The position numbers were made by a program, and so were the translations under genes. Positions 6,545-16,262 of a stretch of 23,733 nt of DNA are shown in pieces (the stretch's first letter is position 1; the number at the start of each line of letters is the position of its first letter). The stretch comes from a virus. The notes under the pieces were generated by a model. That model saw only the letters and a list, made by a program, of their open reading frames with translations, was not told the origin of the DNA and did no database searches. The stretch spans positions 1 through 23,733 of the IMG/VR virus record IMGVR_UViG_3300007516_002694; one strand, 5' to 3'.

Positions 6545-8869
6545 ATGCAATCGCAGGAACCAATGGCCCCGGAGGGTGTAGATCTGTACGACTTTGAGGA
6601 TCACTCCACGCATAGGAACTTGATATTCAATGACGCCAAGGATTCTTTACTATCTCAATTCCCACAGTCCCACAATGGTGTGCGTCTGGAATTGCATGAT
6701 GTAGATTATGCTGATCCCGATAATGTTTCTTTGTCTGATCAAAAGAAAGCTATTCTTGGTAACAAATTTTTAGCCCGCAGGTTAAGAGGAACGGTAAAAC
6801 TATTCGACGAAGAGACAAACGAGCTACTCGACGAGAAAGCGCAGACTCTAATGCGTGTGCCTTATCTGACGCAACGCGGGACATACGTGCACGGCGGTAA
6901 CGATTATGTGTCCATAGCCCAAAGCAGGTTGCTGCCTGGTATGTACACACGACTACAGAAGAGCGGTGAACTAGAGACACAAGTGAACGTCAGATCTGGT
7001 ACTGGTACAGCTTTTCGTGTTGGTCTCGAGCCTAAGACTTCCCAATACAAGATGCGTATTCAATCTGCTAATCTTCATCTGTATTCCCTACTACATGATT
7101 TGGGAACTACAGATGAAGAGCTTGAACGATTGTGGGGTAAAGGCGTACTAGATCTTAATAAGGCCAAATATGATCGTCGTGTTCTAGACAAGGCCTATCA
7201 GCGTCTAGTCAGTAGATGGGACCAGCAGGAGGATGTCACAGATGCGGATAAGGCCGTAGCAATTAAAGATGCTCTCGAGAGATCACAGGCTAATACCAGA
7301 GTCCTGCGTCGCAACGTACCCAATATGTTTGACAGGACTAAGGCGGCTGAGTGGGTGCATCAGGAGGAAGAACTTGACGCACCGGATGATCTAGATTTCA
7401 AACCAGATCTGCGACCTGAGGACATGCGGGACGAGATGAACAGAGTTTATGGGGGAGTTGGAGCTCGACTAGCTTCCATGCAGAAATGGCCTCAGAAATG
7501 GATACACCCCCAAGACCCCAATGGGTGGATGCAATGGTACGAGCAGTATCACCATGGTCGGCGCACTGCCGACGACTCTCGACAGATCAATCGCTGGAAA
7601 GGAATTAAGGCGAGACACCAGAAACAATTTGTAACTAATCCCACACCTAGAAGAGCGTACACTCTACGCAACTGGGCTATAGATCCTTTGGCCAATCTCC
7701 CGGAGGAGGAGCGTGAGAGCTTCAGAGCGCAGATGGATGCCTATAAGGAGGATAGAGACAATAGATTTCAGGTTAAGGCTGCTGTATTGTCCGAGCCTGA
7801 TCTGGCCGCAATTGCTACATTTTTAAATCGAGAGCACAGTGCGGGTTTGGATACAGATTCTAATGTGCGGGAACTGGAATCTCGTATAATGGAGTTCGTC
7901 ACTTATACGCAGGGTATAAATCCAGCAGTGTTACAGGCTGGTATAGACGGGCTGGCCAAAGTACAGAAGCAAGCCAGCGAAGCAGTCTTACACACAGTAA
8001 TGCCAGGTCACTTCATTAAGCTGGCGCGACAAGGAGCTGGTGTGTTGTTTAAGATGCCTAACGGTAAGTATCTACTACAAGAGAATCAACCGGACGACGT
8101 AGACCCGGGGGAAGAGGATACCTTAGGTAAGCTAAGACCAGCTGGGGGAGGTAAACATACCAGTGATAGAAATCTTAAGGCAACCATACTTAGGGAGATG
8201 GAGGAAGAGTTTGGTATATCGCAGGGTACGGCGGGATCCGATGTAACACTTCTTGGGTACATATCCAAAGGTAAGTTCAAGGACTGCGCCATGTTTGAAT
8301 ACTACGGACACGGTCTTAAGCCTGGTTGGTATCAGGCGTCTAATAGCTCTAACGAGAAGATAAAGTTAGTAGAGGCAGAATTGGACGATACCAGATATAT
8401 AGGTCCTAAGTTACAGTCCCTACGTCGCTACCAAAAGAACTACAGACCGTCGTCTCGTGGTAAGAGATTCGAGCCTTGGGTAGGAGTTGATTTGGACGGA
8501 ACTCTTGCGAATTATGACGGACCATGGGACCCTAATCAAATAGGAGATCCTGTACCAACTATGTTGTCCAGGGTTAAGAAGATGATAAAAGACGGTGAGA
8601 CTGTGAAGATATTCACGGCTAGAGCATCTAAGCCAAGTAGCATACCACGTATTCAAAGCTGGCTGGAGATGCATGGACTACCTCGTCTGGAGGTAACAAA
8701 CGTCAAGGATCCAGGTATGAAAGTTTTGTACGACGACAGGGCCGTACAAGTCGAACGTAATAAAGGTACTATTGTTAAGGGGGCATCGGACATGGGCGGT
8801 CAGTCTGGTGTACGCATAGATCCTAAGTATTTGGATTTGGGTAATGAGACAGAACAACATAAGTTATGA
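6545..8869 (+). CDS. RNA polymerase beta-lobe-like / Nudix / HAD fusion protein
   Basis: A 774-aa multidomain protein. Residues about 15-260 match the N-terminal lobe/protrusion of RpoB. The clearest block is VPYLTQRGTYVHGGNDYVSI followed by AQSRLLPGMYTR, matching the bacterial pattern P-L-x-T-x-x-G-T-F-x-x-N-G-x-E-R-V-x-x-x-Q, then x-R-S-P-G-V. FRVGLEPKT and LLHDLGTTDEEL follow in RpoB order. Residues about 315-410 hold a W/QWY-rich domain (WMQWYEQYHHGRR, DDSRQINRW). A Nudix domain follows at about 486-625, with box GGGKHTSDR and REMEEEFGI; the first Glu of the consensus is Arg, but the metal-binding REUxEE core is intact. A HAD phosphatase domain lies at about 643-755: DLDGT, KIFTAR and YDDRA. 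Start ATG 6545 is preferred over TTG 6533. It overlaps the next gene by 4 nt. Whether it is a polymerase part, a processed polyprotein or a relic is open. Confidence 0.8.
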   Translation: MQSQEPMAPEGVDLYDFEDHSTHRNLIFNDAKDSLLSQFPQSHNGVRLELHDVDYADPDNVSLSDQKKAILGNKFLARRLRGTVKLFDEETNELLDEKAQTLMRVPYLTQRGTYVHGGNDYVSIAQSRLLPGMYTRLQKSGELETQVNVRSGTGTAFRVGLEPKTSQYKMRIQSANLHLYSLLHDLGTTDEELERLWGKGVLDLNKAKYDRRVLDKAYQRLVSRWDQQEDVTDADKAVAIKDALERSQANTRVLRRNVPNMFDRTKAAEWVHQEEELDAPDDLDFKPDLRPEDMRDEMNRVYGGVGARLASMQKWPQKWIHPQDPNGWMQWYEQYHHGRRTADDSRQINRWKGIKARHQKQFVTNPTPRRAYTLRNWAIDPLANLPEEERESFRAQMDAYKEDRDNRFQVKAAVLSEPDLAAIATFLNREHSAGLDTDSNVRELESRIMEFVTYTQGINPAVLQAGIDGLAKVQKQASEAVLHTVMPGHFIKLARQGAGVLFKMPNGKYLLQENQPDDVDPGEEDTLGKLRPAGGGKHTSDRNLKATILREMEEEFGISQGTAGSDVTLLGYISKGKFKDCAMFEYYGHGLKPGWYQASNSSNEKIKLVEAELDDTRYIGPKLQSLRRYQKNYRPSSRGKRFEPWVGVDLDGTLANYDGPWDPNQIGDPVPTMLSRVKKMIKDGETVKIFTARASKPSSIPRIQSWLEMHGLPRLEVTNVKDPGMKVLYDDRAVQVERNKGTIVKGASDMGGQSGVRIDPKYLDLGNETEQHKL

Positions 8870-9198
8870 CCACACCGTCACTAAATAAACTATCACACTT
8901 GCAGAAGGTCGTAGCAGCTCTATACGGCGCATCCAGAGCATCCAACCAAGGTCTAAAGGATAGCGCGGACAGCTTGATCAGAAGATCAGGCTTCTTTGGA
9001 GGGGCCAGTTACCCTAGGGCTATTAAGCTGTTCCGTGAAAATGAACCAATGGCTAATACTCTCCTTGGGGGACCTAAGGGCGTAGACTGGAAGGGAGCAC
9101 AGAGTCAACTTAAAGCTCTAATACAACCTAAGGCAACCCAGGTTAAACCTATTGAGCAAGGCTTACTGGACTTAGGCCCGAAGAATACTATAGTATAG
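8866..9198 (+). CDS. Hypothetical protein, 110 aa, between beta-like genes
   Basis: I do not recognise this protein. It begins at an ATGA overlap with the beta-lobe fusion gene and ends 4 nt before the beta-fork gene, so all three are almost certainly co-transcribed and translationally coupled. It is small and basic: an N-terminal helix (LSHLQKVVAALYGASRASNQ), a Gly-rich turn (RRSGFFGGASYPRA) and a C-terminal proline-containing tail. It shows no resemblance to a known polymerase segment that I can see. Its position makes it a candidate accessory factor or a remnant of the insertion that split the beta-like gene. Confidence 0.7.
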   Translation: MTTPSLNKLSHLQKVVAALYGASRASNQGLKDSADSLIRRSGFFGGASYPRAIKLFRENEPMANTLLGGPKGVDWKGAQSQLKALIQPKATQVKPIEQGLLDLGPKNTIV

Positions 9199-9202
9199 TG
9201 AA

Positions 9203-10930
9203 ATGAGTAGGGAGAATATTAGGCGCATGATGGCCAAGGTTGATAAGGCCTTTCGTCAAAAGGAAGCTAGCTCGTTTGGTTCACACAGCCGGGAGGTTCA
9301 GGATGATGGGGAGGAATACTCACAAGTCGGTGTCGGCGGTATACTAGCAGCTACGGAGAATTTGCTTGCTGTGAACAGAGGACTGAAGCCGCCCGATGAA
9401 CGGGACTCGGCCCAGTATAAGAAGACTTTTAGGACGCACCAGCTGCTGGCAGATAGAATACGTTTGGATGCCGGTAAGCTTCGGAAGTCGCTACTGCATA
9501 GGGTGGCTAAACAGCGTAATCTTAAGAGCTTACATAGTTTTTACTTCGATCCTTACGTGGAGGGTCAAATTCTGGGTAATGCACTTAGTGCTCCTCTGGA
9601 GGAGATTAACCCTATGCAGCTGGTGGAGCAGAGCAGACGCACCACTCTAATGGGACCTGGTGGACTAGGAAGCGATCAGGCTATAACCGAAGCTACGCAA
9701 TGTCATTCCGAGGACACCAGCGTTTATACTAAGGAGGGCTGGAAGCTATGGCCTGATGTCACAACTGAAGATTTACTGGCCTGCCGTGTTAACGGAGTTT
9801 TGGAATTTCACAGAGCGGAGTCTCTACATAAGTCCTTCTATAGAGGACCTATGTATGGCGTAAAGTCTATTTCAGTTAACTTTCTTTTATCACCCGACCA
9901 TAGGTTGTTCACATCTTCCAGCGCTAGAACAGAGAATTGGCATTGGGAGACGGCAGAGTATCACCACGGTAAATACCGTTTTTACATCGCGACGGCCGAG
10001 CCCTACGCAGGCACTGATGGTTCGGAAACATTCACTTTACCCCAAGTAGAGAGACACCCCAATGGTCGAGGGCTCAAGGACATCCCCCCCATAGAAATGG
10101 GTGATTGGTGCGAGTTCATGGGCTGGTATCTATCTGAAGGTAGCTGTTATAATGGTGTTAAGGACAACAAATACTCTGTCACGCTCAGCCAATGCGAGAT
10201 TGCCAACCCTGATAAAGTAAGCACTATTAGGGATCTATGCCGCAGACTACCTTTTCACTTCAATAGGAAGGGTGTTAACTTTCGTACTAAATCCAAGGTG
10301 CTATTCAGTTATGTTGAGCAGTTTGGTAAGGCCCTAGATAAGTTCCTACCCGACTTTCTGTTTGAAGTCCGTCCTGAATTCAGACGAAGGTTTTTAAAAT
10401 CTTTTCTGGCTGGCGACGGTAGTAGTCAAAACGGTCGTAGCAAGCTGTATTCATCTTCAAGCCGAAGAATGGTGGATGGTATAGAGCGTCTCTTGATAAG
10501 TTGCGGTGCCTCAACCTCCCTTCGTAAACCATTTAAGGTCTATAACCGCAAAGGGGAACACAGTTCCTGGATACACGCGGTTCGTGAATCTTGCGTGACG
10601 GTGAAAGAGACCAAACCACAAAACCACTTCAAGGAACATTATGAAGGCCACATATACTGCGCCACCGTGCCCGGTGGGATGCTACTCACACGACGCGCTG
10701 GTATGGGTTTTTGGAGTGGTAACTCTCTTCATCCGAGTACTTTCGGATTCCTGTCCGTTTTGGAGGGACCGGAATCGAACCGCATTGGTGTAGATACAAG
10801 AGTAGCATGGGGAGCTAAACTTGGAAGTGATGGTCGCATGTACCAGAAGTTTAAAGACCGCAGAACTGGCAGATATAAATGGATGAGTCCACAGTCCTTG
10901 GATGGCCTTACTATAAAGCTGCCTGATTGA
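9203..10930 (+). CDS. RNA polymerase beta fork-like protein with intein
   Basis: Once the intein (residues 167-507) is removed, a 234-aa protein remains that follows the RpoB fork/rifampicin-pocket region. PPDERDSAQYKK corresponds to the bacterial D-D-I-D-H-L-G-N-R-R segment. APLEEINPMQLVEQSRR then TTLMGPGGLG matches N-P-L-x-E-x-T-H-K-R-R then S-A-L-G-P-G-G-L. SLHPSTFGFLSVLEGPESNR then IGVD matches V-H-P-x-H-Y-G-R-x-C-P-x-E-T-P-E-G-P-N-I-G-L. It takes up roughly where the beta-like part of the gene at 6545 stops. The C-terminal beta region carrying the active-site lysines is absent. Start ATG lies 4 nt after the preceding stop with no Shine-Dalgarno. The gene ends before a new promoter, so the rest of beta must be elsewhere or lost. 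Confidence 0.82.
   Translation: MSRENIRRMMAKVDKAFRQKEASSFGSHSREVQDDGEEYSQVGVGGILAATENLLAVNRGLKPPDERDSAQYKKTFRTHQLLADRIRLDAGKLRKSLLHRVAKQRNLKSLHSFYFDPYVEGQILGNALSAPLEEINPMQLVEQSRRTTLMGPGGLGSDQAITEATQCHSEDTSVYTKEGWKLWPDVTTEDLLACRVNGVLEFHRAESLHKSFYRGPMYGVKSISVNFLLSPDHRLFTSSSARTENWHWETAEYHHGKYRFYIATAEPYAGTDGSETFTLPQVERHPNGRGLKDIPPIEMGDWCEFMGWYLSEGSCYNGVKDNKYSVTLSQCEIANPDKVSTIRDLCRRLPFHFNRKGVNFRTKSKVLFSYVEQFGKALDKFLPDFLFEVRPEFRRRFLKSFLAGDGSSQNGRSKLYSSSSRRMVDGIERLLISCGASTSLRKPFKVYNRKGEHSSWIHAVRESCVTVKETKPQNHFKEHYEGHIYCATVPGGMLLTRRAGMGFWSGNSLHPSTFGFLSVLEGPESNRIGVDTRVAWGAKLGSDGRMYQKFKDRRTGRYKWMSPQSLDGLTIKLPD
9701..10723 (+). other. LAGLIDADG intein in beta-fork-like gene (341 aa)
   Basis: A protein-splicing element begins at Cys (CHSEDTSVYTKEGWK) and ends at Asn (GFWSGN) before an extein Ser. 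Splicing motifs are visible: block A at the Cys, block B with SPDHRLF (the H of the TxxH motif, with Ser for Thr), and block F HIYCATVPGGMLL followed by the terminal SGN. The penultimate residue is Gly instead of the usual His. Two dodecapeptides mark a homing endonuclease: EFMGWYLSEGS (about residue 303) and FLKSFLAGDGSS (about residue 396). It is inserted immediately before the conserved His-Pro-Ser of the beta fork, a typical intein choice of an invariant site. Boundaries come from the two exteins joining into a continuous RpoB-like sequence. Confidence 0.88.
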
Positions 10931-13385: not shown

Positions 13386-13554
13386 GCACGGAGCAGTTGT
13401 AGCCGGAGAGACGCCTTCCGAGGTGAGCGGTAAAACATCAGAGATTATTAAGAGCGGTACCGCCGTACTGCGGGACGAGGAGCCTAGCCAGTATAAGATA
13501 GAGAATATAAAAATAGTAGACGTCGCCATCGACGACTCCAATAAACCACAATAA
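13378..13554 (+). CDS. Small hypothetical protein, 58 aa
   Basis: I do not recognise this protein. The ATG at 13378 overlaps the previous stop, and its own TAA shares one base with the portal start, so translation is probably coupled. It is hydrophilic and Ser/Thr/Glu-rich with one basic patch. A TTG three codons upstream is in frame but less likely. Its position directly before the portal gene and its size are compatible with a small connector accessory protein. Confidence 0.6.
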   Translation: MIKHGAVVAGETPSEVSGKTSEIIKSGTAVLRDEEPSQYKIENIKIVDVAIDDSNKPQ

Positions 13555-16262
13555 TGTCTTTTGCGAATTGTAATAATGACGCGTTCAATTCCTTGAACGA
13601 CGGCAGTAAATTTTCCGATCCTTTCTTAACTCCAAGTAACGCGTTCATACCTAAGGATTTGAAATCGGCTATGGATTTCAGTCTTTTCCTGTATCACCTA
13701 AATTCCAACTACAGGCGAGCCTCTCAACGCGTGGTGGCCCACTTTGTTACTGAAATTGATTTCACTGGAGAGACAGGCGACCATAAGGAGAGGGATGAAC
13801 TTTACGATTACCTCCGCGATGGGTTGGATATATTTGGAGCCATAATGTCCATGGGGGAAGAGTGGGCGTGTTTCTCAGGGTCAACCAAGGTACCCACCAG
13901 GGATGGTGTATTCTCTATTAAGGATTTAGTGGGTCAAACTGTGGACGTTATAAGTCAAGACGGTGTCTACCGACCAGCCGAGTTTAAGTCTTTTGGTAAG
14001 CAGAGGCTTATGAAGGTGACCTTGTCTGACGGGCAGGAATTCGAAGCAACCCCCGATCACAAATGGGTGGTTCATAATGTCTTCGGCAAAGAGATCAGAG
14101 TAAACACATCAGATCTTCTATTAGGAGATAAGATCAAACGTACGGTGGCGGAACGTCCAGATAAGGACGAATCATATTACGCAGGTGTGAGACACGGTTT
14201 CGTATTTGGTAATGGTACACTGGCAGACGGAGGTGCCCACTCGACAGTTTCATTCCTAGGAGGCGACGAACACGACGTCCTGCACTATTTCGAAGGTCAC
14301 GGCGTCCACCTATTAAGCTTGGAAGGATCTCTTGTACGCGTGTCGGACTTACCTACCTACTATAAAGCACTACCCGAGCACGACGCCAGCGCCTCTTACT
14401 GGTATGGTTTTGTATGTGGTCTGTTGGCTGCTAACGGTGTAGTCGAATCACAGGGATCAGTAAGTATAGATCAAAGTAATTCGCATGAGTTGGACTCCTT
14501 AGTAGATCAACTACCTAGATTAGGTATGGCGTCCACTGAGTCAATACAGACCTTGAACAATGTTCATCAAGTTCACTTACTAAAGCAATTCATGCTACCC
14601 GGGGACTTCCTTGTTTCCAGGCACCGTGATAACTTTTCTGATGATTGGGATATACATTACACAGGTGATCAGTTCATAGATATTGAGTCCCTATCGGATA
14701 CCGACAAAGAGGAAGAGGTGTTCTGTTGCACTGAGATGGCCACGCACACATTCGTTGTTGGTAATGGTGTTCTAACCTCCAACTGCTATGGCAATTCGTT
14801 CTGGAGAATTTTCTTCCCATTTGATCGATACTTGATCGACACTAGAAATGGCGGATACGCGGAATACTCATTATCTATGTTTGGTGATGACGCCGAGTTT
14901 GATATTAGATCATTAACATACAAGGTCACAGATCCAAGGGATGCGGCTAAAGGATCGGACAAAAGAAAGAGAGTATCACTACCGTTTAGGGATAGGCGTT
15001 CCACAGACTTGAGTCGTATTAAGCTCTGCCCACTGGATCCTCGTCAGATCCGTCTTCAACATAGCTGGATCAGTAAGAAAACCAGAGTAGTGTATCAGTT
15101 TGAGGAGTGGTTCTTAAGTCAGATAAGGGAAGGTAGACTGCATCAGGTCAATGAGACGCCTATTGATATGCTTAAGGCTATTCAGAATGACGAGGATTTT
15201 CTTTTCGACGAGGACAGTGTGTTCCACTGTAAAGCTCCTACTATAAGTGGCATCAGCAATAACGGATGGGGTATACCAGAACCTATTCTAAATTACAGAT
15301 CACTGCATCAGTTACAAGTATACAGAAAGATTGATGAGTCCATAGGATTAGACCACATGCAACCGTTCCGTTTGTTCAGCCCTAACCTTGGGGGGAGCAT
15401 TGGAGACACCACCATTTACCAACACCTTGGCGTATGGGCTGATAACATCGGTAGGCTGATTGGTAATAGACGTAAGGATCCATCTAAAATGCACGCCTTT
15501 CCGTTTCCTGTTAACTATCAGGAGTTTGGCGCTGACGGTAAAAGTTTGTCACCCAAAGACCTTATTGAATTTCAAACCAACGACATGCTCGACGGTATGG
15601 GTTACCCGGCCGAACTGTTCAGAGGAAGCTTAAGCGTACAGCAGATACCAACCGCTCTGCGTCTATTTGAGAACACGTTTCACTTTCTTCATCGTAACTT
15701 TGATCAGTTTCTAAGTTGGGTCACAAGACGCACTCTAGACTACCTTAACAGAGAACAAATTGGAGTCAGTCTGCAGTTGCCGTCGATAGCTAACGATCTG
15801 GAGGAAAGACATATTTATCTGCAGCTTGCAGCAGGAGGTGAGATCAGTCGCGGTAAGGCTTACAGTCCGTTTAACATTAAGGACCCTGTACAAGAGGCTA
15901 AGGAGCGTATGCAGGAGGATATTGAGATAGAGCGAGAGAAGCAGAAGATACAGGCTGATTTTCAGAGGGAACAAACACAAGGCAGTGCGGATCAGGTTAT
16001 AGCGGGTCAGATGCAGGGACAGCCAGCAGGCGGGTCAGGTGGTAATACTACCCCATTGGATATTATGGCGCAGGCTGAGGAGCAAGCTGCTCAGCTGCTT
16101 CAGATAGAGAGCGACGGAGAGAGATCTAAGATGCTTAGGCAAATACAGGCTTCTAATCCAACACTTCATGCTGTGGTTAAGCAACAGATGGAGACTATGA
16201 GAGGTGCTGCCGCTTCACAGGGTAGGGCATCGGTAGGTCAACAATTAAGCCAGGGTGGTTGA
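13554..16262 (+). CDS. Portal protein interrupted by an intein
   Basis: After removing the intein (residues 106-410) a 597-aa protein remains. It would form the dodecameric ring at the capsid vertex through which DNA is packaged and ejected. Portal-like features include the core block GWGIPEPILNYRSLHQLQV and nearby YRKIDESIGLDHMQPFRLFS, typical of the clip/stem approach region in many tailed-phage portals. Others are the helical stretch ALRLFENTFHFLHRNFDQFL and a Gln/Glu/Ala-rich C-terminal tail (from about residue 780 of the precursor) as in portal barrels. The N-terminal NSNYRRASQRVVAHFVTEID also fits. The start shares a base with the previous stop and has no Shine-Dalgarno. The following genes look like ejection or head proteins, consistent with a portal at the start of a morphogenesis block. 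Confidence 0.82.
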   Translation: MSFANCNNDAFNSLNDGSKFSDPFLTPSNAFIPKDLKSAMDFSLFLYHLNSNYRRASQRVVAHFVTEIDFTGETGDHKERDELYDYLRDGLDIFGAIMSMGEEWACFSGSTKVPTRDGVFSIKDLVGQTVDVISQDGVYRPAEFKSFGKQRLMKVTLSDGQEFEATPDHKWVVHNVFGKEIRVNTSDLLLGDKIKRTVAERPDKDESYYAGVRHGFVFGNGTLADGGAHSTVSFLGGDEHDVLHYFEGHGVHLLSLEGSLVRVSDLPTYYKALPEHDASASYWYGFVCGLLAANGVVESQGSVSIDQSNSHELDSLVDQLPRLGMASTESIQTLNNVHQVHLLKQFMLPGDFLVSRHRDNFSDDWDIHYTGDQFIDIESLSDTDKEEEVFCCTEMATHTFVVGNGVLTSNCYGNSFWRIFFPFDRYLIDTRNGGYAEYSLSMFGDDAEFDIRSLTYKVTDPRDAAKGSDKRKRVSLPFRDRRSTDLSRIKLCPLDPRQIRLQHSWISKKTRVVYQFEEWFLSQIREGRLHQVNETPIDMLKAIQNDEDFLFDEDSVFHCKAPTISGISNNGWGIPEPILNYRSLHQLQVYRKIDESIGLDHMQPFRLFSPNLGGSIGDTTIYQHLGVWADNIGRLIGNRRKDPSKMHAFPFPVNYQEFGADGKSLSPKDLIEFQTNDMLDGMGYPAELFRGSLSVQQIPTALRLFENTFHFLHRNFDQFLSWVTRRTLDYLNREQIGVSLQLPSIANDLEERHIYLQLAAGGEISRGKAYSPFNIKDPVQEAKERMQEDIEIEREKQKIQADFQREQTQGSADQVIAGQMQGQPAGGSGGNTTPLDIMAQAEEQAAQLLQIESDGERSKMLRQIQASNPTLHAVVKQQMETMRGAAASQGRASVGQQLSQGG
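13869..14783 (+). other. Intein in portal gene (305 aa)
   Basis: Begins at Cys (CFSGSTKVPTRDGVFSIKDL, block A) and ends at Asn (HTFVVGNGVLTSN, block F) followed by an extein Cys. Block B is recognisable as EATPDHKWVVHN. The central part carries weak LAGLIDADG-like dodecapeptides (RHGFVFGNGTL and GFVCGLLAANGVV), suggesting a degenerate homing endonuclease. The residue before the terminal Asn is Ser rather than His. Removal joins GEEWA to CYGNSFWRIF without a gap. Confidence 0.88.

What the first reader, a model, noticed from the sequence alone, without database searches (positions are those of the whole stretch)
6545..10930. Split RNA polymerase beta-like protein in a phage
Seen: 6545-8869 contains the RpoB lobe block (VPYLTQRGTYVHGGNDYVSI, then ...LPGMYTR), and the exteins of 9203-10930 contain the RpoB fork/rifampicin-pocket block (NPMQLVEQSRR, MGPGGLG, SLHPSTFGF, LEGPESNRIGVD). 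They occur in RpoB order on the same strand. Known: some large phages encode virion or early RNA polymerases with beta subunits split over several genes. Inference: this phage carries a divergent beta subunit split here, by insertion of a W/QWY-Nudix-HAD segment and a 110-aa gene. The active-site C-terminal part of beta is not in the window, so it may be encoded elsewhere or lost.
Basis: partly seen in the sequence, partly recalled or inferred. Interest (0 to 1): 0.92.

Follow-up and report, generated by a model that had tools for sequence, protein, structure and literature searches.

The report
Phage RNA polymerase split into pieces
This phage genome encodes two pieces of a bacterial-type RNA polymerase that its relatives make as one or two long proteins, and one piece has gained extra enzyme domains that vary from phage to phage and are probably carried into the host cell at the start of infection.

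Summary
Residues 65-252 of the first protein match RpoB profiles (E 1.9e-6) and fold like the beta protrusion/lobe. The spliced 9203-10930 product carries Rpb2 domain 3, interrupted by a 341-aa intein. These are separate adjacent genes in at least 20 distinct related contigs.

The window is a 23.7-kb fragment. Large relatives (196 and 212 kb) encode the missing parts elsewhere as three further genes: beta-C, beta'-N and beta'-C, with the catalytic motifs intact. So the core enzyme is five polypeptides. Most of the wider family (over 120 IMG/VR stretches, Salmonella phage Arash, Vibrio phage D69) instead fuses beta to beta'-N; six contigs have all of beta and beta' in one chain of about 2,100 aa. 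On the tree the window's split clade is single (SH-aLRT 100) and nested among fused lineages, so the splitting is derived.

The Nudix/HAD segment did not cause the split: several split relatives lack it. The tail of the first fragment is a cargo slot holding Nudix, HAD, InPase, 2H/Acb1-like, GH108 or nothing. Arash's fused homolog was the most-detected virion protein by MS. Best reading: a virion RNA polymerase whose first fragment became a polyvalent-type carrier.

The parts
6545..8869 (+). gene for beta-N fragment (774 aa) with an enzyme-domain tail
6581..7369 (+). RpoB protrusion/lobe part, residues ~13-275 (E. coli beta ~50-410)
   Evidence: NCBIfam rpoB E 1.9e-6; Foldseek top 50 all RNAP beta; alignment to E. 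coli and fused homologs
7460..7699 (+). QWY domain (WIHPQDPNGWMQWY...), conserved in many split relatives, absent in others; function unknown
7730..7984 (+). short helical linker domain shared with several relatives
   Evidence: 'mid' query; AlphaFold helices
8027..8305 (+). Nudix hydrolase domain; REMEEEFG of the Nudix box kept, first Nudix Glu replaced
   Evidence: Pfam NUDIX E 0.0017, below cut-off; in relative L002 E 3.4e-4 at the cut-off
8480..8752 (+). HAD-family phosphatase domain (DLDGT, FTARA, DDRA motifs)
   Evidence: PHROG 1238 E 7.3e-10, PHROG 415 E 7.8e-6
8866..9198 (+). 110-aa gene of unknown function, found only in this species
9203..10930 (+). gene for beta fork fragment, interrupted by an intein
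   Evidence: Pfam Rpb2_3 E 7.9e-5
9203..9700 (+). N-extein (NPMQLVEQSRR, MGPGGLG)
9701..10723 (+). 341-aa intein with LAGLIDADG domain (C...GN|S)
   Evidence: Pfam LAGLIDADG_3 E 1.1e-4; boundaries; absent in homologs without insert
10724..10930 (+). C-extein (SLHPSTFGF, LEGPESNRIGVD); ends where other split fork proteins end
13554..16262 (+). portal protein gene (with its own intein 13869-14783), neighbour of the RNAP genes in fused and split relatives

Best explanation
The two genes encode the first two of five polypeptides that together make a bacterial-type (double-psi-barrel) phage RNA polymerase core: beta-N, fork, beta-C, beta'-N and beta'-C. The last three are encoded outside this fragment. 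The enzyme is most likely made late, packaged in the head and injected, where it assembles without alpha subunits and transcribes early phage genes. The split is derived: the family ancestor carried beta fused to beta'-N in one protein, which was cut at the end of the lobe, after the fork and between beta and beta'. The new C-terminus of beta-N, at the end of the lobe, then served as an attachment point for varying enzyme domains, which travel with the polymerase in the manner of polyvalent proteins. Shown here: homology, separate genes, conserved split, missing parts and catalytic motifs in relatives, nested phylogeny, variable cargo, portal linkage. Inferred: packaging (by homology to Arash), assembly and activity of the window's own enzyme, and the role of the cargo.
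For: Homology and fold. Separate adjacent genes in at least 20 distinct contigs. Missing pieces elsewhere in G003 (196 kb) and G005 (212 kb), with DxDGD and the paired-Lys motif; beta-C also stands alone in G013, G015, G016, G020 and G022. Fused state widespread; one-chain state. Intermediate G014 keeps beta-C fused to beta'-N. Trees. Virion detection of Arash gp206 (3516 spectra, the most of any protein) and gp216: PMC10585845. Portal gene next door in fused and split members. No alpha in 14 records, control positive. Purifying selection on beta-N, fork and tail (dN/dS 0.03-0.24). Cargo: InPase E 5.5e-51, 2H phosphoesterase 1.8e-9, GH108 2.7e-9; Acb1 at its cut-off and DUF6624 4.5e-12.
Against: The window's own beta-C, beta'-N and beta'-C were not seen, and no contig could be linked to it. 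Virion packaging is known only for Arash, which branches far from the split clade. The fork fragment gave a poor stand-alone model (pLDDT 54). The Nudix match in the window is below Pfam's cut-off. Backbone support between fused lineages is partly weak, and the larger tree used a quick search without bootstraps.
Confidence: 0.78

Rival explanations
1. It is a non-virion RNAP, made after infection for middle or late genes, and its tail domains act as ordinary enzymes in the infected cell.
For: phiKZ-type phages have such an enzyme (PMC7598289). G003 also encodes a sigma-70-like protein, which could serve a newly made polymerase.
Against: The family seems to have one RNAP set per genome. In Arash that set is in the virion. 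The genes sit next to portal genes. A GH108 lysozyme tail makes most sense on an injected virion protein.
Confidence: 0.2
2. The fragments are relics of a decayed polymerase, or have been reused as structural proteins without transcription activity.
For: The active-site part is missing from the window.
Against: Relatives keep all five pieces with catalytic motifs. Both fragments are under purifying selection in relatives. Inteins persist in conserved catalytic-core sites, in frame.
Confidence: 0.07
3. The multi-piece state is ancestral (a remnant of early multi-protein polymerases) and the fused forms are derived.
For: This has been proposed for phiKZ-type phage RNAPs (PMC7824862).
Against: Within this family the split clade is nested in fused lineages; only 6 state changes are needed against 23.8 in shuffles. 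A split clade member, G014, retains the beta-C/beta'-N fusion.
Confidence: 0.08

Closest known systems
Salmonella phage Arash gp206/gp216 (OQ632216; PMC10585845)
   Same: Homologous RNAP (about 24-34% identity over matched parts); portal gene next to it; gp206 and gp216 found in virions
   Different: Arash has beta and beta'-N in one 1525-aa protein plus a separate beta'-C; no cargo at the lobe end. The paper calls gp206 simply beta and gp216 beta'.
mReC, multi-subunit RNAP-encoding Caudovirales (PMC7481178)
   Same: IMG/VR tailed phages with a bacterial-type RNAP forming a clade apart from cellular enzymes; probably overlaps this family
   Different: Their main text does not describe fused, one-chain or split architectures, inteins or cargo; membership could not be checked against their contig list.
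phiKZ/AR9-type jumbo phage vRNAP and nvRNAP (PMC7598289, PMC7824862)
   Same: Beta and beta' split over several proteins, beta' cut after the catalytic barrel, no alpha subunit; AR9-type vRNAP carries an extra HD phosphohydrolase domain
   Different: Those genomes carry two RNAPs and no sigma factor; here one set per genome, sigma-70-like proteins in some, and clear similarity to bacterial RpoB.
Polyvalent proteins, including N4 virion RNAP (PMC5512222)
   Same: A virion-type polymerase protein fused to disparate enzyme domains (InPase, 2H phosphoesterase, lysozyme), encoded beside head genes
   Different: N4 vRNAP is a single-subunit T7-type enzyme; here the carrier is one fragment of a multi-subunit bacterial-type enzyme.
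P23-45 tail-tape-fused vRNAP (PMC10770324) and crAss-like phage RNAP
   Same: Virion-linked RNAPs of the cellular superfamily in unusual fusions
   Different: Known here from the abstract and general knowledge only; not a divided beta subunit with variable cargo. No direct comparison was made.

Membership tests
Bacterial-type RNAP beta subunit (RpoB) | Protrusion/lobe and Rpb2 domain 3 recognisable by profile and fold | tested here: met
Bacterial-type RNAP beta subunit (RpoB) | Catalytic beta barrel with paired lysines, partner DxDGD in beta' | not testable with these tools
   Outside the window fragment; present in split relatives G003 and G005
Arash-type phage RNAP family | Sequence homology along the beta part and portal-gene neighbourhood | tested here: met
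Arash-type phage RNAP family | Presence in the virion | not testable with these tools
   Only published for Arash
phiKZ-type jumbo phage RNAPs | Two RNAP sets (virion and non-virion) per genome | tested here: not met
   One set found in G003, G005 and Arash; records may be incomplete
phiKZ-type jumbo phage RNAPs | No sigma factor encoded | tested here: not met
   Sigma70_r2 in G003, Arash and D181; no match in the other 11 records
phiKZ-type jumbo phage RNAPs | Sequence relationship to phiKZ/AR9 subunits | tested here: inconclusive
   No phiKZ-type record among tblastn hits of beta-C; best 60 PDB chains shown are cellular
mReC | RNAP clade separate from bacterial RNAP | tested here: met
   Relatives only, 100/100 support, bacteria as sole outgroup
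mReC | Major capsid protein of PF07068 | tested here: inconclusive
   No match anywhere, including controls
Polyvalent proteins | Several domains of disparate activity in one polypeptide | tested here: met
   Window: RNAP fragment, QWY, Nudix (below cut-off), HAD; relatives with InPase, GH108, 2H/Acb1
Polyvalent proteins | Injected into the host with the DNA | not testable with these tools
   Needs virion proteomics and injection assays

The most novel reading that the evidence does not exclude
Fission of a virion RNA polymerase turned its first beta fragment into a modular delivery vehicle: varying cargo enzymes, including Acb1-like 2H phosphodiesterases, pyrophosphatases, Nudix/HAD nucleotidases and lysozyme, ride on the polymerase lobe into the host and blunt nucleotide-signal defences or aid entry while the same complex starts early transcription.
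Probability: 0.45. Interest if true: 0.88.

Novelty: new variant of a known kind. Interest (0 to 1): 0.77.

Why it matters
How and why phage RNA polymerases came to be split is open: ancient remnant, inheritance from cyanobacteria, or splitting by mobile introns have all been proposed for the phiKZ type. This family shows a full series within one clade, from a whole beta-beta' in one chain to five polypeptides, with an inferred direction. It also links a multi-subunit polymerase to polyvalent-type cargo, which makes the idea of a polymerase that delivers counter-defence enzymes directly testable.

Tried and rejected
Insertion of Nudix/HAD as the cause of the split: rejected. Homing-element split in D181 as an intermediate: rejected, because the interruption is a 931-nt group I intron (RF00028, 100.7 bits) absent from sister phage D69. 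Introns in the window, L002, L004, L007 or six other loci: none found at gathering scores. Alpha subunit: none found. Fork fragment structure: low confidence, so not searched. Capsid test for mReC: uninformative. Linking a beta-C contig to the window's phage: none came from L001's dataset among the 80 loci kept. No known family was found for the QWY domain; it matches uncharacterised stretches in Vibrio jumbo phages pVa-21 and pVp-JHP1101. VIA-align of the whole 774-aa model gave Z 11 but large rmsd, so Foldseek and sequence profiles carry the fold claim.

Full report
Check of the observation. The window is an IMG/VR virus fragment of 23,733 bases. Residues 65-252 of the first protein match the NCBIfam rpoB model at E 1.9e-6 and the second protein matches it weakly, outside its intein, in the expected order. 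The second protein also passes the Pfam cut-off for Rpb2 domain 3. A profile built from 19 homologs of the first fragment finds E. coli RpoB among 500 shuffled decoys (E 3e-5), and one from 11 fork homologs finds it at 1e-14. The fork profile finds solved RNAP beta chains at E down to 1.7e-13. The AlphaFold model of the first protein is confident for residues ~20-260, and the top 50 Foldseek matches are all RNAP beta chains.

Anatomy. Alignment with E. coli beta and fused homologs puts the first cut near E. coli residues ~400-418, in the stretch between the last lobe strand and the helix starting at GILSKDD (residue 418); the fork protein ends near residue ~615, and beta-C begins aligning near 645-650. 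The first protein continues past the RNAP part with a QWY domain, a short helical domain, a Nudix domain and a HAD phosphatase domain. The fork gene holds a 341-aa LAGLIDADG intein at 9701-10723, between TQ and SLHPS, next to the rifampicin-pocket region. A 110-aa gene of unknown function lies between the two genes and is seen only in this species.

Is the split real? Contig L001 is 99.92% identical to the window over 16.8 kb. At least 20 distinct contigs carry beta-N and fork as separate genes, in many of them between recQ and the portal gene. In G003 the genes are 20 nt apart and in G005 they overlap by a few bases, and no intron was found at Rfam gathering scores. Both fragments show purifying selection: dN/dS 0.03-0.15 for beta-N, 0.04-0.14 for fork and 0.14-0.24 for the tail, in two pairs of relatives.

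Where is the rest? In G003 (196 kb) beta-C is a 643-aa frame, beta'-N a 465-aa frame with GADFDGD, and beta'-C a 1171-aa frame with two inteins, at three distant places; G005 (212 kb) is alike. The paired lysine motif and the aspartate triad are kept. Beta-C also stands alone in G013, G015, G016, G020 and G022, while G014 keeps beta-C fused to beta'-N (1225 aa). So the complete enzyme of the split clade is five polypeptides. The window's own three missing parts were not seen, because the record is a fragment.

The wider family. Arash gp206 (1525 aa) is beta fused to beta'-N, and gp216 is beta'-C. Vibrio phage D69 has the same fused gene as one 1527-aa frame. In D181 and D148 the gene is interrupted, in D181 by a 931-nt group I intron with a homing endonuclease gene, so D181 is intron-interrupted rather than split. 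A scan with a beta-C profile found 123 matching stretches in IMG/VR; 80 loci were kept. Of these, 49 carry beta-N, fork, beta-C and beta'-N in one frame, 20 have beta-C alone, and 8 have beta-C with beta'-N. Six contigs have all five segments, including beta'-C, in one frame of 2069-2123 aa. In the tree the split clade (17 rows, including G014's locus) has SH-aLRT 100 and is nested among fused lineages. The four architecture classes need 6 changes against 23.8 on average for shuffled labels. A smaller, more careful tree gives the split clade 100/100 support. A second, independent cut lineage (L208, L211, L226) also has beta-N as a separate short gene. The direction from fused to split is therefore an inference with good but not complete support; deep branches are long and some are weakly supported.

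How it probably works. In Arash, gp206 gave the most spectra of any virion protein and gp216 was among the top five (PMC10585845). The RNAP genes sit beside the portal gene in fused and split members alike. No alpha subunit was found in 14 records in which the control search worked; sigma-70-like proteins were found in G003, Arash and D181 only. The most likely role is a virion RNA polymerase that is injected and transcribes early genes. Virion packaging for the split clade is inferred from Arash.

The tail as a cargo slot. At the same position the six fused homologs aligned run straight on with no insert. Split relatives carry no recognised domain (G003, L158, L159), QWY alone (G005), QWY with Nudix (L074), InPase (L095, E 5.5e-51), a 2H phosphoesterase (L084, E 1.8e-9; L254, 6.1e-9), a 2H domain reaching the Acb1 cut-off plus DUF6624 (L252), or GH108 lysozyme with Nudix and HAD (L002). 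InPase, 2H phosphoesterase, GNAT and lysozyme domains are described in polyvalent proteins, and the N4 virion RNAP is one of them (PMC5512222). The best match of the window's HAD domain in phage records is in Tunturi_5 gp273, which also has Nudix, GNAT and an ADP-ribosyltransferase domain of polyvalent proteins and lies beside a minor head gene. This fits a model in which the freed end of beta-N collects enzymes that act early in infection. That these enzymes act against host defences is a hypothesis; no activity was tested.

Comparison and novelty. The enzyme works like the split virion polymerases of phiKZ-type phages, but it is not filed with them: only one RNAP set per genome was found, some members encode sigma factors, and similarity to bacterial RpoB is plain (beta-C to PDB chains, E 8e-57 for one sequence). 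It belongs to the Arash-type family, which probably overlaps the mReC of Weinheimer and Aylward; their main text does not describe fused, one-chain or split forms. I rate it a new variant of a known kind. The library searched holds open-licence papers only, so prior notice elsewhere cannot be excluded.

Noticed in passing
L219, L220, L224, L229, L236, L240: Six IMG/VR contigs encode the whole beta and beta' RNAP core in one open frame of about 2,100 aa.
   Followed up: partly
L009:20769-21699 (Vibrio phage D181) versus L156 (D69): A 931-nt group I intron with a homing endonuclease gene interrupts the fused RNAP gene in D181 but not in D69.
   Followed up: yes
G003:C1:32273-35785 and G005:C1:4724-8221: Beta'-C genes hold two inteins each, placed in or next to the bridge helix and trigger loop of the active centre (read from the sequences).
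   Followed up: partly
window 13869-14783: The portal gene has its own intein (about 305 aa).
   Followed up: no
L084, L103-L111, L158, L159 fork genes: A second intein site in the fork gene, at GPE|S, is used by many relatives; these inteins are often related to the window's intein at the other site.
   Followed up: partly
L100, L102, L109 fork genes: In some relatives the fork gene, not beta-N, has about 410 extra codons at its start, so the split point may gain domains on either side; the true start codon was not checked.
   Followed up: no
L158 (Bacteroidales MAG), L159 (Oscillospiraceae MAG): Split-clade phage contigs binned into gut bacterial genomes; the hosts are uncertain.
   Followed up: no
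W01:7422-8102 (Arash): A 227-aa Arash frame matches residues 216-318 of beta'-C gp216 at E 4e-5; meaning unknown.
   Followed up: no
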